Positions 2,555 to 15,887 of a DNA stretch of 40,522 nucleotides are shown piece by piece (within the stretch, counting starts at the first letter, position 1; each line of letters opens with the position of its first letter). Origin of the DNA: a virus. Under the pieces are notes generated by a model. It had not been told where the DNA came from. It made no database searches and saw only the letters and a program-made list of their open reading frames with translations. A program made the position numbers and the translations under genes. The stretch lies in the IMG/VR virus record IMGVR_UViG_3300048834_000178, positions 1 to 40,522 of that record. One strand, 5' to 3'.

Positions 2555-5500
2555 GATCGCCACCGGATACATCAGCATCGTCCCGTCGCTCAAAGGGTTC
2601 TCGGCGTCGTTGAGCGCGCAGATGGCCCCGATGCTGGCGGGCGCGGGGGCGACCGCCGGGCAGCAACTCGGGAACGCCGTAGGCGACAACTACAACAAGG
2701 CCCTCGCGTCGAAACTCGACGGGACCGGCAAGAACCTGACGAAGTTCTTGAGCGTCCCGCTCGCGGCGGTCGGCGCTATCAGCGTCAAGACCGCCGCCGA
2801 CTTCGAGAGTTCCATGAGCCAGGTCGCGCAGGCCATCGGGAAGCCGGGGCAGCCGCTCGCGGAACTCACCGCCCTCGCCCAGCGGCTAGGCGCCGACACG
2901 CAGTACAGCGCCAACGAGGCCGCGCAGGCGATGGTCGAACTGGCGAAGGGCGGCTTCAGCGAGGCGCAGATCAAAGCCGGTGCCCTCAAGACCGCCATGT
3001 CGCTGGCGGCAGCCGGGCAAATGGACCTGGCGGACGCAGCGAACCTCACCGTGCAGGCGATGGGCGCGTTCAAACTGTCGTCGCAGGATTCCGCCGCTAT
3101 CGCCGACGCGCTGGCCGGAGGCGCGAACGCGTCGTCGGCGAGCGTGCACGACCTGGCGCTGGCTTTGTCGCAGGCGGGCGCCGGGGCGTACCAGTCCGGT
3201 ATGACCTTGCAGGAAACCACCGCCGCGCTCGCGGCGATGGCCGACGCGGGGGTGCAAGGTTCCGACGCCGGGACCAGCCTCAAGGTGATGCTGGGCAGGT
3301 TGCAGCCCGAAGGCCGCAAAGTCACCAACATGTTCCGCGACATGGGGCTGCTCGCCGAGGACGGCACCAGCAAGTTCGTCAACGCGAACGGCTCCTTCAA
3401 GTCGATGGAGGAGATCGCCGGGCTGCTGCAAGCGAAACTCGGTGGCCTGTCTGAAGCGCAACGCACCCAGGCCCTGCAAACCATGTTCGGGACGGACGCG
3501 TACCGCGCCGCCGCGATCCTCATGGAGCAGGGCGCCGACGGCATCGCCAAGTACGAGGCGGCCACGGCGAAGGCCGGATCGGCGCAGGAAGCCGCCACCG
3601 CGAACCTCGGGCCGACCTCCCGTGCGATTGAAGAAGCGAAAGGCGCCGCCGAAACGGCTGCTATCGCGTTCGGGGAGGCTCTAGCCCCGGCGGTCAGTAA
3701 GGCCGCGCGCCTGGCGCAGACCGGATTCGCGTGGTTCGGGCGGCTGCCCGGCCCCGTCCGCACCACCACGGCGACGGTAGCGGCGCTGGCCGTGGCCGTT
3801 GGCCCCCTGCTGGTCGTCACCTCGAAGATGATTACGGCTATCGGGGTGGTGCGGGGGGCGCTGCTCGGGGAGAAGGCGGCACTGGTCGCGTCGCGGGTAG
3901 CGTGGCTGGCGCGGCAGGCCGTGTTCGGCGTGCAGGCGCTGTGGGCCGTGGTGACGGTTATCGGCCAGGCGACCGCCGCATGGCTGCTCAACACGGCGCA
4001 AGTCGTCGCGAACAAGGTGGCGTTGGTCGCCACGAACATCGCCATGTACGCGGTGCGCGGCGCCGTCATGGCGTGGACCGCCGCCCAATGGGCCTTGAAC
4101 GTCGCCCTCAACGCCAACCCGATCGGTCTCGTCGTCACGGCTATCGCGGCGCTGGTCGCCATCGTGGTGCTGCTGTGGAACAAGAACGAAGGGTTCCGCA
4201 ACTTCATCCTCGCCGCATGGGACCAGATCAAGGTCGCCGCCGAGGTGATCTGGGGCGCGATCAAAAAGGTGTTCGAGGTCGTCTGGGAGGCTATCGCCTG
4301 GTACGTGCGGACGTACGTGACCGTCGTTAAGACCGTCGTCAAGGCCGTCTGGGACTTCCTGCAACAGGCCACCGATACCGTCTGGGGCGCGATCCGCCGC
4401 GCCATCGAAGTCGTGTGGGACGCCATCGTCTGGTACGTCCGCACCTACATCAACACCGTGAAGACCGTCGTCACAACCGTGTGGAACGGCATCAAGACCG
4501 CCACCAACGCCGCCTGGGACGCGATCAAGTCGCACATCATCGAGCCGATCTACGCCGCGTGGCAACGCGCCGTAGGAATAGTCGGGTCGCTGCGGGACGA
4601 CCTGTCCGGGGTGTGGACCGCCGTAAAGACCCGCGCCGGGAACGCCTGGGACGCGATCAAAGACGCCATCACCGGCCCCGTCCAGGCCGTGTGGGGACTC
4701 ATCCAGTCGGCGCTGGGCATCGGCGACAAAGGCGGCATCGCCGAAGGTGGCCCGCTAAGCATCCTCGTCGGCGTGTTCGACAAGGTCGTCGGGAAGATCG
4801 GCGAGAAGTTCGCCGGGATCAAAGCCGCAATCGTCGCCCCGATAGCCGACGCGTTCGACTGGGTGAACAAGAACGTCATCACCCGGCTCAACGACTCGGT
4901 GCTGGCCGAATTCGGCAACCTCCGCATCCCGCTACTGCCCGTCCCCGACGTGCCTAAGTACGCCACAGGCGGGTGGATCAGCGGGCCAGGCACCGGCACC
5001 TCCGACAGTGTGCTGATGCGCGGGTCGAACGGGGAGTTCGTCGTCAACGCGCGCGCCGCTAAAGCGAACGCGGCGCTGCTAGAAGCAGTCAACTCCGGCG
5101 CGACGGTGCAGTTGCAATCCGCCTACCCGAATTCGCAGCCGGGAGGCCCTTCCATCCCGACTATCCGGGCCATCGCCGACACGCTGTTCCGGAAGGGCGC
5201 CGAGGTAGCGGTCCGGGCTATCGGCGACCCCGCCTTGTCGTTCGTGAAGGCGACGTTCGGGGGGACGGTCGGCGGGGATCTGGCTACCGGCGCGTTCGGG
5301 ACCGTCCTGGATTCGGTGGCGAAGTGGGCCGCGAAGCAGGAGATCGCCCCGACCCCGCTGATGGAGGCCCTGGCGAGCAGGTTCGAGCGGTGGGCCGACG
5401 AAGGCAAATGGGTGGGGGTGTCTACCTGCCTGCGGAACATCAACTTGTCGTTGCAGGAACTCGGGCGCGAATTCGGGTTCACGGTCAACTCCTTCGCGCT

Positions 5501-5975
5501 GGCGGGCACGGCCTACGAGGCCAACCGTGGAGTCGCGGCGTCGGGCATGATGCACCGCAACACGCGCGCGCCGCGCGGCGCCCTCGGGCACTGGGACCCG
5601 GGCATCGGGAACTACGCCGGGCACATCGCGGCGATGGACGGGCGCGGCAACTTCATGAACAACTTCTCGGGGGGGACGGTCGTGAAGTTGCCGCTCGCGT
5701 CGGCGATGAGCGGCTGGATGGGCTGGTCGTACCCTTGGTCGCTGATCGCGGGGGGCGGCAAGTACGACAACGGCGGCTGGCTCCAGCCGGGGTGGTCGCT
5801 GAACTTCAACGGCACGGGCCAGCCCGAAGCGGTGCTGACCGCCGACCAGTGGGACGCGGTGAAGTCCAGCGGCGGCGTCACCAACAACTGGACCGTGTAC
5901 GCCAAGGAAGAACCGACCGTGGACGCCACCATGAGGGCGTGGCGGCAGTGGGAAACGCTACAAGGAGTGGGGTAA
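2541..5975 (+). CDS. Tail tape measure protein with C-terminal Cys/His hydrolase-like domain
   Basis: This is the longest gene (1144 residues). Residues about 75-200 match the TP901-type tape measure core ([17 protein letters not shown], then [20 protein letters not shown]). Hydrophobic stretches at about 405-430 and 525-550 fit the segments that enter the host membrane during DNA injection. Residues about 565-660 hold Trp-rich repeats (W-x2-I at roughly 11-residue spacing, with WYVRTY twice). The last about 190 residues contain [11 protein letters not shown] with Cys963 and YAGHIAAM with His1028, resembling an NlpC/P60 or CHAP-type cell-wall hydrolase. At about 0.15 nm per residue the tail would be near 170 nm. 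Confidence 0.92.
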
Positions 5976-5979
5976 CCGT

Positions 5980-6897
5980 ATGCCTATCGTCGTGCCGTTC
6001 CCCACTCCCCCGTCGACGGTCTACCCGGTCGGGCAGCCGCCCGCGTTGACGTTGACGCGCGGCGCCGACGTGCTACCGCTGACGTTGACGCAAGGCTGGG
6101 TGGTGCTGCCTGGGGTGGAAGGGCTGGACGACCCGCCCCGGTCGCTGATCGAGGTCACCCCGGCGACCGGGGACGGGTCCATCGTCACCGATGCCCGCTA
6201 CACCCCCCGCGAGGTGTTCCTGCCCCTGCACTACAAGGCGGGCACCACGGGGGCGTTGCGGGCGACGCTGCGGGCTGTGGCTTCGCTGATGGACGCGAAG
6301 GCCGGTCCGGTCACCCTCGAAGTCGCGCACGCCGACGGTACCCGCCGCTACTGCGACGGGTACCTGACGCAGCCCTACGGGCAGGCCCTCGGGTCCGGGG
6401 AAGGCGCGGGACTGTGGCGGCAGGTCGGGTTGCGGCTACGCTGCCCCGACCCGTTCTTCGCCGGGGACAGCGCGACCCTTTCCTGGGCGCTGGGCGGCGA
6501 CCCGCCGCCTTTCCTCGGGGGCGAGTTCCTGCCTTTGGGGCTGGCGAATTCGCAGGTTCTCGGCGCCGGGGTGGAAGTCGTCAACGCGGGCGACGCCTAC
6601 GCCTACCCGCTGTGGACGCTGACCGGCCCGTTCGACGCGGCCACAGTGTCGTGCGGCGCGTCGGAGTGGGCCGTCCCCGACGGCCTAGACGAAGGCGAAA
6701 CCCTCGTGATCGACGCCCGCCGGGGCGTCAAGACCTGCACCGTGAACGGCGCGCCCGCCTGGGGCAGGCTAGCGCCCGGCTCCATCATTGAGTCGCTGCC
6801 GCCCGGCCCGACAACCCTCAACGTGGAGGCTGTCGGCGCGACCGCCGCATCATCTATCGCCCTGACGTACCGGGAAAGGTGGCTGACGGCATGGTGA
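5980..6897 (+). CDS. Distal tail protein (Dit-like minor tail protein)
   Basis: A 305-residue protein directly after the tape measure, the usual place of the Dit hub protein that joins the tail tip to the tube. The N-terminal half contains RYTPREVFLPLHYKA and RRYCDGYLTQPYG, and LRLRCPDPFFAGD follows. That pattern of a beta-domain ending in C/A-PDPF is common in siphovirus-type tail component proteins. The C-terminal half is beta-rich. The gene starts 4 bases after the tape measure stop and overlaps the next gene by 7 bases. Confidence 0.8.
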   Translation: MPIVVPFPTPPSTVYPVGQPPALTLTRGADVLPLTLTQGWVVLPGVEGLDDPPRSLIEVTPATGDGSIVTDARYTPREVFLPLHYKAGTTGALRATLRAVASLMDAKAGPVTLEVAHADGTRRYCDGYLTQPYGQALGSGEGAGLWRQVGLRLRCPDPFFAGDSATLSWALGGDPPPFLGGEFLPLGLANSQVLGAGVEVVNAGDAYAYPLWTLTGPFDAATVSCGASEWAVPDGLDEGETLVIDARRGVKTCTVNGAPAWGRLAPGSIIESLPPGPTTLNVEAVGATAASSIALTYRERWLTAW

Positions 6898-14296: not shown

Positions 14297-15142
14297 CTAG
14301 ACGGCCATCGGCAGGCCCGCTACCGCCCGCCCGATCTGCTCGTCGTTGACCTGCGTATACACCTGCGTCGTTTGCAGGTTGGCGTGGCGCATTGACTCCT
14401 GAACCACGCGCATCTGCGCGCCCCCGGCCACGAGTTGCGTCCCGAACCAGTGGCGTAGGCTGTGCGCCGACCCGGCCACCCCGCACCGCTTCATGTGCTC
14501 CGCGACGACCCGCGACACGTTATGCCCGGTGACGTGCTGATCGGCGCGGGCGCCGTAGGCCGGGAACCACCAGCCGCTGTCAGGCATCCCAGCGGCGTAC
14601 CGCGCCAGCGCCGGGTGCAGCGGCAGGACGGCCTCGCGGCGCCCCTTCCCCGTCACGAACAAGTGCCCCTCGACAATGTCCTCCCCGGCGACGGCGGCAA
14701 TCTCCGAGACCCTCAGCCCGGCGTACGCCCCCAGCAGCAGGTAGCCGCGTAGGCGCCGGGTGCGCGCCCGCGCCAGCAGCGCCCGCAACTCGTCGGTGGT
14801 GACGGGGTGCGGCACGCCTGCCGCTACCGCCACGTTGTCTACCTGGCCCATGGGGTTGTCGCCGCGTAGGCCGCGCCGGTGCATCCACCCGAAGAACGCC
14901 CGCAGCGCGTCGGTGTAGGCGCGGCGGGTGCTGGGCTTCCAGGCGGGGTTCGACCCGAGCCACCGTTCGATGGCCCACACGTCGGCGGTGAGGGGGTCCA
15001 GGCCGCTATGGACAACGATGCGGAGGCGTTCCTCAACGGTGCGCGGCGACTTGCCTTGGGCGCGCATAGAAGCCGCCCACAATTCGAGTACCCCCGCCTG
15101 GTTAGTCACGTAAGGGGTTATACCCCTAGCGGGCGCAAACAT
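14297..15142 (-). CDS. int: Tyrosine integrase
   Basis: A 281-residue tyrosine recombinase. The N-terminal half has a SAM-like core-binding domain (LWAASMRAQGKSPRTVEERL). The catalytic domain has Arg144 (AYAGLRVSEIA), Lys166 (VTGKGRRE), His227 and Arg230 (HSLRH), His253 and Tyr262 (TTQVYTQ), so all catalytic residues are present. It integrates the phage at attB, and the adjacent tRNA-Lys-like core suggests a tRNA-Lys target. The gene overlaps the 3' end of the repressor gene by 17 bases. The C-terminus ends PMAV, a non-polar end that might affect stability, but no clear ssrA-like tag is seen. Confidence 0.93.
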   Translation of the reverse strand: MFAPARGITPYVTNQAGVLELWAASMRAQGKSPRTVEERLRIVVHSGLDPLTADVWAIERWLGSNPAWKPSTRRAYTDALRAFFGWMHRRGLRGDNPMGQVDNVAVAAGVPHPVTTDELRALLARARTRRLRGYLLLGAYAGLRVSEIAAVAGEDIVEGHLFVTGKGRREAVLPLHPALARYAAGMPDSGWWFPAYGARADQHVTGHNVSRVVAEHMKRCGVAGSAHSLRHWFGTQLVAGGAQMRVVQESMRHANLQTTQVYTQVNDEQIGRAVAGLPMAV

Positions 15143-15560
15143 GGTGAGATCTCGGCCACACGCGGCAACGCGCCAGGGGGCGCCGTGGCCGCGAACACGC
15201 GCCCTTTGGATTAAAAGTCCGCTGCGCTACCAATTGCGCCATAGGGGCGTCGTCGCGCCGCTTCGGTGGGCGGCGCGTCTGCCCGGCCATCCTACCGCCC
15301 CCCTGCGGCGGGAAAGGGACGAAGCCGTCGAACCCGTTGAGCAACTGGTCTACGGAGCAGTCGAACAGCCCGGATAGGGAAACCAGGTTCTCTACGGTCC
15401 AGTGTGAAGATCCGCGCATGCGGCCCCGGTAGACCTGGTCGGAGACGCCGAGGGCGCGGGCTACGTCGTCGCCGGTCTTGTTGTCGCGGGTCATGAGGAC
15501 GGCGACGGTTTGGCTGATCCAGCGGTGGCGCTGGTCGATGCTCATGGTTGCGTGTTCCAT
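15126..15560 (-). CDS. XRE-type repressor whose 3' end contains attP
   Basis: A 144-residue protein in viral form with a helix-turn-helix region in the first about 80 residues (TGDDVARALGVSDQVYRGRM, then WTVENLVSLSGLFDCSVDQLL). The C-terminal about 40 residues are encoded by the attP core and beyond. The core is read as APMAQLVAQRTFNP, from about residue 105 to 119, and the tail after it is Arg/Cys-rich, ending HVCAR. Integration would separate the gene here and give a shorter repressor with a host-encoded end. This is the known layout of integration-dependent immunity (phages BPs, Charlie, Brujita). ATG 15545 is an alternative start with GGAA upstream; the 15560 start would be nearly leaderless. 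Confidence 0.75.
   Translation of the reverse strand: MEHATMSIDQRHRWISQTVAVLMTRDNKTGDDVARALGVSDQVYRGRMRGSSHWTVENLVSLSGLFDCSVDQLLNGFDGFVPFPPQGGGRMAGQTRRPPKRRDDAPMAQLVAQRTFNPKGACSRPRRPLARCRVWPRSHHVCAR
15205..15248 (-). other. attP: attP core matching the 5' half of a tRNA-Lys (UUU) gene
   Basis: On the minus strand these 44 bases read as a tRNA 5' half: acceptor strand GCCCCTA, T8-G9, D-arm GCGC-AATTGGTA-GCGC, A26, anticodon stem GCGGA, loop CTTTTAA with anticodon TTT, then TCC. The 3' half does not complete the anticodon stem, forms only a 4-bp T-stem with an 8-base loop, and lacks a matching acceptor strand, so this is not a working tRNA. It lies between the DNA-binding part of the repressor gene and int, the expected attP position. 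Exact core limits need the host attB. Confidence 0.75.
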
Positions 15561-15569
15561 GACCGTGAG

Positions 15570-15683
15570 CGTAACGAATTGTTACGGCACGTAACAACAT
15601 GGCGCCCGGGATTCGGGTAAACGCGCCCGGCGCGCCGTTACGGAAACCACTAGCGGCGTTACGTTTCGTAACGTAACGTTACG
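15570..15683. promoter_or_regulatory. Operator region between repressor and divergent early genes
   Basis: Eight copies of GTTACG/CGTAAC lie in 114 bases. Two form matching palindromes: TTGTTACG-GCA-CGTAACAA at 15579-15597 (8-bp arms) next to the repressor start, and CGTTACG-TTT-CGTAACG at 15657-15673 (7-bp arms) just upstream of the rightward gene. Both have a 3-base centre. Other half-sites are at 15570, 15637, 15673 and 15678. This looks like the switch where the repressor binds to control both directions. Confidence 0.75.
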
Positions 15684-15686
15684 GCC

Positions 15687-15887
15687 ATGACCGCTACTGC
15701 AAGCGCGAAACGCGCCCTCATCGAGGACCGGCTGGGCACCCCCGTCGCCCCCCTCATCAGGCAATTCCGCCGCGACGACCGCTCCTGGCGGTGGATCGCC
15801 GCCTACCTGTCCGAGCGGTCCGGTGTTCCGGTATCGCACGTCGCCGTGCGCCGCTACGCGCAGCATTCCGGCGGGGCGGCGGCATGA
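15687..15887 (+). CDS. Small HTH protein, divergent from the repressor (Cro-like position)
   Basis: A 66-residue basic protein with a helix-turn-helix-like segment (SWRWIAAYLSERSGVPVSHV, then AVRRYAQ). It is the first gene of the rightward early operon, divergent from the repressor, with the second operator palindrome ending 14 bases before its start. The position is that of a Cro or early regulator in temperate phages, and in integration-dependent systems a Cro-like gene lies divergent to the repressor. The start ATG has no strong ribosome-binding site, so translation may be near-leaderless. It overlaps the next gene by ATGA. Confidence 0.65.
   Translation: MTATASAKRALIEDRLGTPVAPLIRQFRRDDRSWRWIAAYLSERSGVPVSHVAVRRYAQHSGGAAA

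What the first reader, a model, noticed from the sequence alone, without database searches (positions are those of the whole stretch)
15126..15560. attP inside the repressor gene: likely integration-dependent immunity switch
The tRNA-Lys-like core lies in frame in the 3' part of the repressor gene, between its HTH domain and the overlapping int gene, and a small HTH gene is divergent. This is the architecture of integration-dependent immunity known from mycobacteriophages BPs, Charlie and Brujita, where integration shortens and stabilises the repressor. Here the viral form is 144 residues and the prophage form would lose the last about 25, replaced by host-encoded residues. The viral tail ends HVCAR rather than an ssrA-like LAA, so a different degradation signal, or none, would be needed.
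Basis: partly seen in the sequence, partly recalled or inferred. Interest (0 to 1): 0.8.

Follow-up and report, generated by a model that had tools for sequence, protein, structure and literature searches.

The report
Backwards tRNA attachment site in repressor
This phage hides its chromosome-docking site inside the gene for its own repressor, as a known group of phages does, but it copies the opposite half of a host transfer-RNA gene in the opposite direction, so that after docking the host's lysine tRNA would probably have to be transcribed together with the phage repressor.

Summary
Window 15208-15248 (minus strand) is a perfect 5' half (nt 1-41) of a tRNA-Lys(UUU) gene, in frame (codons 105-118) in an HTH repressor ORF just upstream of an integrase of the Brujita Gp33 family (5vfz, E 9e-51). 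The architecture is that of integration-dependent immunity, but reversed: in the relatives examined the core is a tRNA 3' half antisense to the repressor; here, and in two other IMG/VR phages (L015, L096), it is a 5' half in sense, read in frame 1. For L096 a matching tRNA gene exists (41/41 identical); joining the two puts a TAG stop directly after the core (viral 125 aa, prophage 102 aa), as described for phage BPs. The same tRNA type would cut the window repressor from 144 to 118 aa, but the window's own host tRNA was not found, so its junction is unproven. No ssrA-like tag is visible (Rep ends VCAR, Int PMAV), whereas about 20 antisense-core repressors end AA or VA. The flip should put the rebuilt tRNA-Lys gene under phage transcription. 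A new variant of a known kind; whether immunity really depends on integration is untested.

The parts
15126..15560 (-). Repressor gene, viral form, 144 aa
   Evidence: ORF; HTH and phage-repressor families
15342..15479 (-). HTH domain, residues 28-73
   Evidence: Pfam HTH_3 E 1.8e-4
15208..15248 (-). attP core: tRNA-Lys(UUU) 5' half, nt 1-41, sense to rep, codons 105-118
   Evidence: BLAST to tRNA-Lys genes, Rfam, grammar scan, frame
15126..15206 (-). Viral C-terminal tail KGACSRPRRPLARCRVWPRSHHVCAR plus stop, predicted lost on integration
   Evidence: Sequence; no AA/VA end, unlike antisense-core relatives; openness expected by chance
14297..15109 (-). Tyrosine integrase, 270 aa from GTG 15109 (281 aa from ATG 15142), ends PMAV
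   Evidence: Pfam PF00589 3e-19; 5vfz Gp33 E 9e-51; phage relatives
15687..15887 (+). Small divergent gene, 66 aa, Cro- or excisionase-like position
   Evidence: weak HTH; similar to the L096 divergent gene
15570..15595 (.). Operator-like repeat, rep side (CGTAACGAATTGTTACGGCACGTAAC)
   Evidence: Repeat scan; 8 GTTAC/GTAAC in 126 bp against 0.11 expected
15658..15683 (.). Operator-like repeat, divergent-gene side
15568..15597 (-). Candidate repressor promoter TTGTTA-18-TACGCT, ending 7 nt before the ATG and overlapping the rep-side repeat
   Evidence: Read by eye from the sequence; a consensus resemblance only, not reported by the sigma-70 scan

Best explanation
It is a reversed-core variant of integration-dependent immunity. 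Int recombines attP (15208-15248) with a host tRNA-Lys(UUU) gene, probably in or near the anticodon loop. On the repressor side the junction then reads rep codons 1-104 followed by a complete tRNA-Lys: 5' half from the phage, 3' half from the host. The repressor loses its viral tail. With hosts whose tRNA continues ...AATCCGTAG it stops right after the core (118 aa); with other tRNA-Lys types it reads on through the tRNA. The junction form would be the repressor that maintains immunity; the long form, made together with Int before integration, would be weaker or short-lived. Because the shared sequence stops at tRNA nt 1 and the tRNA is sense to rep, the rebuilt tRNA is cut off from its host promoter and must be transcribed from the prophage, most simply from the repressor promoter, while the old host promoter now faces int. 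Shown: core, frame, gene order, family, operator-like repeats, and the predicted truncation for L096 with a matching tRNA gene. Inferred: use of this core as attP, crossover point, truncation in this phage, any difference in stability or activity, and the source of tRNA transcription.
For: Perfect tRNA-Lys 5' half, unique in the window. Integrase of the family of Brujita and its kin, whose relatives carry a tRNA core inside the repressor ORF upstream of int. Two further phages with the same sense 5'-half layout, L015 and L096. All three are read in frame 1; frames 2 and 3 are closed by stops in the window and L096 cores. L096 core identical 41/41 to a complete tRNA-Lys in L107, with a TAG right after the core on joining: 125 to 102 aa; same stop with a Nonomuraea tRNA-Lys. 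No complete tRNA gene in the window that could replace a broken host tRNA. Operator-like repeats in the divergent region.
Against: Host tRNA of this phage not found, so attB and junctions are unseen. No ssrA-like end on Rep or Int. Many tRNA-Lys genes have no stop after the core in this frame, in which case the prophage form need not be shorter. Viral tail shows no clear codon-position bias and its openness is expected by chance. L015 has an extra T in its core that ends the viral ORF there.
Confidence: 0.6

Rival explanations
1. [quoted passage not shown] Integration replaces a dispensable tail, both forms repress equally, and immunity does not depend on integration.
For: No degradation tag on Rep or Int; the tail is open by chance level and weakly biased.
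Against: Same gene order and integrase family as proven integration-dependent systems (PMC4557955, PMC9262239); all three sense-type phages read the core in the only open frame; L096 gains a stop exactly at the core end and loses a tail ending in LSA.
Confidence: 0.3
2. The tRNA half is a relic of an older attachment site or of a transduced tRNA gene, and the phage integrates elsewhere or not at all.
For: No genome searched carries the exact core.
Against: Stem pairing of the core is intact; it sits exactly between the HTH-coding part and int as in the relatives; it is the only tRNA-like site in the window.
Confidence: 0.08

Closest known systems
Integration-dependent immunity of mycobacteriophages BPs, Charlie, Brujita and of Gordonia phages (Broussard et al. 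2013, as cited in PMC9262239; PMC4557955; PMC5559632)
   Same: attP core copied from a tRNA gene lies inside the repressor ORF, int follows directly, small gene diverges, integrase of the same family, junction can create a stop at the core edge
   Different: There the core is a tRNA 3' half antisense to rep and both proteins bear ssrA-like tails; here it is a 5' half in sense and no tag is visible
pTN3-like archaeal integrative elements and the 159 of 3919 Islander islands with a 5' tDNA fragment (PMC8371274, PMC4383910; Zhao and Williams 2002, not held, cited in PMC6563490)
   Same: The element supplies the tRNA 5' half, so the rebuilt tRNA lies next to element DNA on its promoter side
   Different: pTN3-like integrases carry the site in the integrase gene, not in a repressor gene; no immunity role is described
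tRNA-dependent lysogeny (Fionnbharth and others, tRNA-Lys-TTT; PMC10865867)
   Same: Same tRNA isotype; prophage and host tRNA supply are linked
   Different: Those phages share only about 10 bp with attB and carry a whole tRNA gene; here the phage carries an exact half and no tRNA gene

Membership tests
Integration-dependent immunity (BPs/Charlie/Brujita type) | attP core within the repressor coding sequence | tested here: met
   tRNA half in frame at codons 105-118; its use as attP is inferred
Integration-dependent immunity (BPs/Charlie/Brujita type) | int directly downstream of rep, same strand, of this integrase family | tested here: met
   5vfz Gp33 E 9e-51
Integration-dependent immunity (BPs/Charlie/Brujita type) | Core contains the tRNA 3' end, antisense to rep | tested here: not met
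   5' half, sense; relatives are antisense 3' half
Integration-dependent immunity (BPs/Charlie/Brujita type) | ssrA-like C-terminal tag on the viral repressor (and usually on Int) | tested here: not met
   VCAR and PMAV against AA or VA in about 20 antisense-core repressors
Integration-dependent immunity (BPs/Charlie/Brujita type) | Integration yields a truncated repressor | tested here: inconclusive
   Predicted for L096 with a matching tRNA gene; the window's host tRNA was not found
Integration-dependent immunity (BPs/Charlie/Brujita type) | Prophage form active, viral form unstable or inactive | not testable with these tools
   Needs lysogens and protein half-life measurement
5'-half tRNA integrators (pTN3-like and Islander 5' type) | Element carries the tRNA 5' half | tested here: met
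   Shared sequence begins at tRNA nt 1 and ends at nt 41
5'-half tRNA integrators (pTN3-like and Islander 5' type) | Rebuilt tRNA expressed from an element promoter | not testable with these tools
   Follows from the layout; no transcript data

The most novel reading that the evidence does not exclude
In the lysogen, repressor and host tRNA-Lys(UUU) come from one transcript started at the autoregulated repressor promoter. RNase P release of the tRNA removes the repressor's stop codon, so each transcript yields mainly repressor or tRNA, and shutting the repressor promoter also starves the cell of tRNA-Lys(UUU). Immunity and an essential host tRNA would be one regulatory unit.
Probability: 0.25. 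Interest if true: 0.85.

Novelty: new variant of a known kind. Interest (0 to 1): 0.56.

Why it matters
The known integration-dependent switches rebuild the host tRNA from its 3' half, so the tRNA keeps its own promoter. A version with the tRNA half flipped shows that the switch tolerates either orientation of the target. It would force a coupling between phage immunity and the supply of a host tRNA, and it offers a test of whether a proteolytic tag is needed for such a switch at all. It also gives a simple sequence signature (tRNA 5' half, sense, frame 1, inside rep) for finding more cases.

Tried and rejected
Host search by exact 41-mer and by a 31-base degenerate core in GTDB genomes: no match; in IMG/VR the degenerate core hits only tRNA-Lys genes in seven large phage contigs. 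So the window's own attB was not seen. The genome search could not be centred on a virus or plasmid record. Single-sequence scans of IMG/VR with the window Int and Rep found nothing; alignment-based scans worked. Gordonia phages Jeanie and GRU3, which target tRNA-Lys, were checked as possible earlier cases of the flipped core: they are antisense 3' half. An independent promoter for the rebuilt tRNA: a TAGGAT lies at 15289-15294, 40 nt upstream of the core, but no matching -35 was seen; undecided. Special RNA structure of the viral core region: none (z 0.30). The resemblance of the window repressor to the GRLGESNPRP motif of the relatives was rejected as homology, because in the relatives this stretch is encoded by the antisense tRNA T-arm. 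BPs itself is not in the phage collection under the two accessions tried; its layout is taken from PMC9262239. Zhao and Williams 2002 and Broussard 2013 are not held.

Full report
WHAT IS THERE. The window is an IMG/VR virus record of 40,522 bp with rep, core and int contiguous, so it is the unintegrated form. On the minus strand a 144-aa ORF (15126-15560) is followed by a tyrosine integrase (14297-15109 from GTG, or to 15142 from ATG); a 66-aa ORF diverges at 15687-15887. The 144-aa protein has a helix-turn-helix at residues 28-73. The 126-bp divergent region holds 8 GTTAC/GTAAC pentamers (0.11 expected), arranged as two operator-like repeats at 15570-15595 and 15658-15683. A TTGTTA-18-TACGCT promoter candidate ends 7 nt before the repressor ATG and overlaps the rep-side repeat; this was read by eye and is a resemblance only (the sigma-70 scan does not list it).

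THE CORE. Reading with the repressor, 15248 to 15208 is GCCCCTATGGCGCAATTGGTAGCGCAGCGGACTTTTAATCC: nucleotides 1 to 41 of a tRNA-Lys(UUU) with intact D-stem and anticodon stem. BLAST matches to tRNA-Lys genes of actinobacteriophages mostly begin near nt 1 and stop at nt 40-41. A tRNA-half grammar matches only here in the window (0.01 per shuffled window). ARAGORN finds no tRNA gene in the window. The core begins at codon 105 in phase 0.

RELATIVES. The integrase matches the solved Gp33 integrase 5vfz at E 9e-51; its best phage hits are WST1, Rem711, QueenHazel, Purky and Brujita, all with a repressor gene directly upstream. I collected 80 IMG/VR loci with this integrase. Most loci with enough upstream sequence hold an antisense T-arm there, that is, a tRNA 3' half read backwards. 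This includes Charlie (L039/L114) and Brujita, and also the tRNA-Lys-targeting Gordonia phages Jeanie and GRU3. Two loci are like the window: L015 (IMG/VR 3300048837_000774, Int 55% identical) and L096 (3300036835_000168, Int about 42%). Both carry a tRNA-Lys(UUU) 5' half in sense inside the repressor. In a tree of 64 integrases the window and L015 are sisters (99/99); L096 is a separate long branch, so one or two origins are possible.

FRAME. All three cores are read in frame 1 (APMAQLVAQRTFNP, APIAQLAELRTF, GPLAQLAELRTFNP). Frames 2 and 3 are closed by stops in the window and L096 cores. L015 has one extra T in the anticodon loop, which ends its ORF there with TAA; an assembly error cannot be excluded.

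WHAT INTEGRATION DOES. For L096 a matching target exists: the complete tRNA-Lys(UUU) in L107 (IMG/VR 2588254172, nt 871-944) is identical at all 41 core positions; identity extends one base to the left and none to the right. The next bases of that tRNA are GTAG, so the joined frame reads ...RTFNP-stop: the repressor goes from 125 to 102 aa and loses ESRSAKVINFPAGRRRSSVKLSA. A tRNA-Lys of Nonomuraea gerenzanensis gives the same stop. This matches the solution described for BPs, where the host base next to the core creates a stop (PMC9262239). The same tRNA type would give the window a prophage form of 118 aa, losing 26 residues. Most other tRNA-Lys(UUU) genes seen read on past the core in this frame, and the window's host was not found, so the outcome in this phage is open.

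THE FLIP. In the known systems the core includes the tRNA 3' end (PMC9262239), so the rebuilt gene keeps the host 5' half and promoter. Here the phage supplies the 5' half, and the shared sequence ends at tRNA nt 1 (L096: one further base). No upstream host sequence is carried, so in the lysogen the rebuilt tRNA-Lys lies directly downstream of rep and in sense with it and must be transcribed from prophage DNA, while the old host promoter faces int. Expression of a rebuilt tRNA from an element promoter is described for archaeal pTN3-like integrases and called seldom in bacteria (PMC8371274); 159 of 3919 mapped islands carry a 5' fragment (PMC4383910). I found no report of it inside a repressor gene in the papers held. 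That the repressor transcript also yields the tRNA, and that RNase P cleavage would then strip the repressor's stop codon, follow from the anatomy but are untested.

DEGRADATION TAG. About 20 distinct antisense-core repressors end in AA or VA, and most of their integrases in A, AA or AS/VS. The window Rep ends VCAR and Int PMAV; L096 ends LSA and VGA. The tag, a defining feature of the known systems, is not met in the window. The viral tail shows no clear codon-position bias and its openness is expected by chance, so equal activity of both forms remains a real alternative.

VERDICT. Observation confirmed; interpretation partly supported. By anatomy the site works like integration-dependent immunity, but two defining features (3'-half core, ssrA-like tag) were tested and not met, so it is described as a new variant that works like that system, not as a member.

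Noticed in passing
L107:871-1333: A canonical prophage (antisense type) sits in the same tRNA-Lys(UUU): its repressor (905-1333, minus) reads into the tRNA 3' half and ends ...WGSNPQPTD-stop in the anticodon loop, so both core orientations exploit the same kind of target.
   Followed up: partly
L015:2853-2893: The core of L015 has five T instead of four in the anticodon loop, which creates a TAA stop in the repressor and would give an 8-nt anticodon loop; real mutation or assembly error unknown.
   Followed up: partly
L104 (GRU3), reverse complement of 5101-6800, around 585 and 662: GRU3 carries two tandem copies of its tRNA-Lys attP core 77 bp apart in the rep-int region.
   Followed up: no
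L023:3836-3909, L044:3815-3888, L074:3833-3906, L089 near 3877: Several relatives carry complete tRNA-Lys(UUU) genes just past the 3' end of int, as in tRNA-dependent lysogeny.
   Followed up: no
15126-15207 (-): The bases after the core weakly resemble a decayed tRNA 3' half (AGG at the variable loop, CGTG-TTCGCGGC-CACG hairpin), which Rfam uses to complete its hit; not seen in L015 or L096, probably chance.
   Followed up: partly
15111-15130: GGGGTATAACCCC inverted repeat directly before the GTG start of int; role unknown.
   Followed up: no
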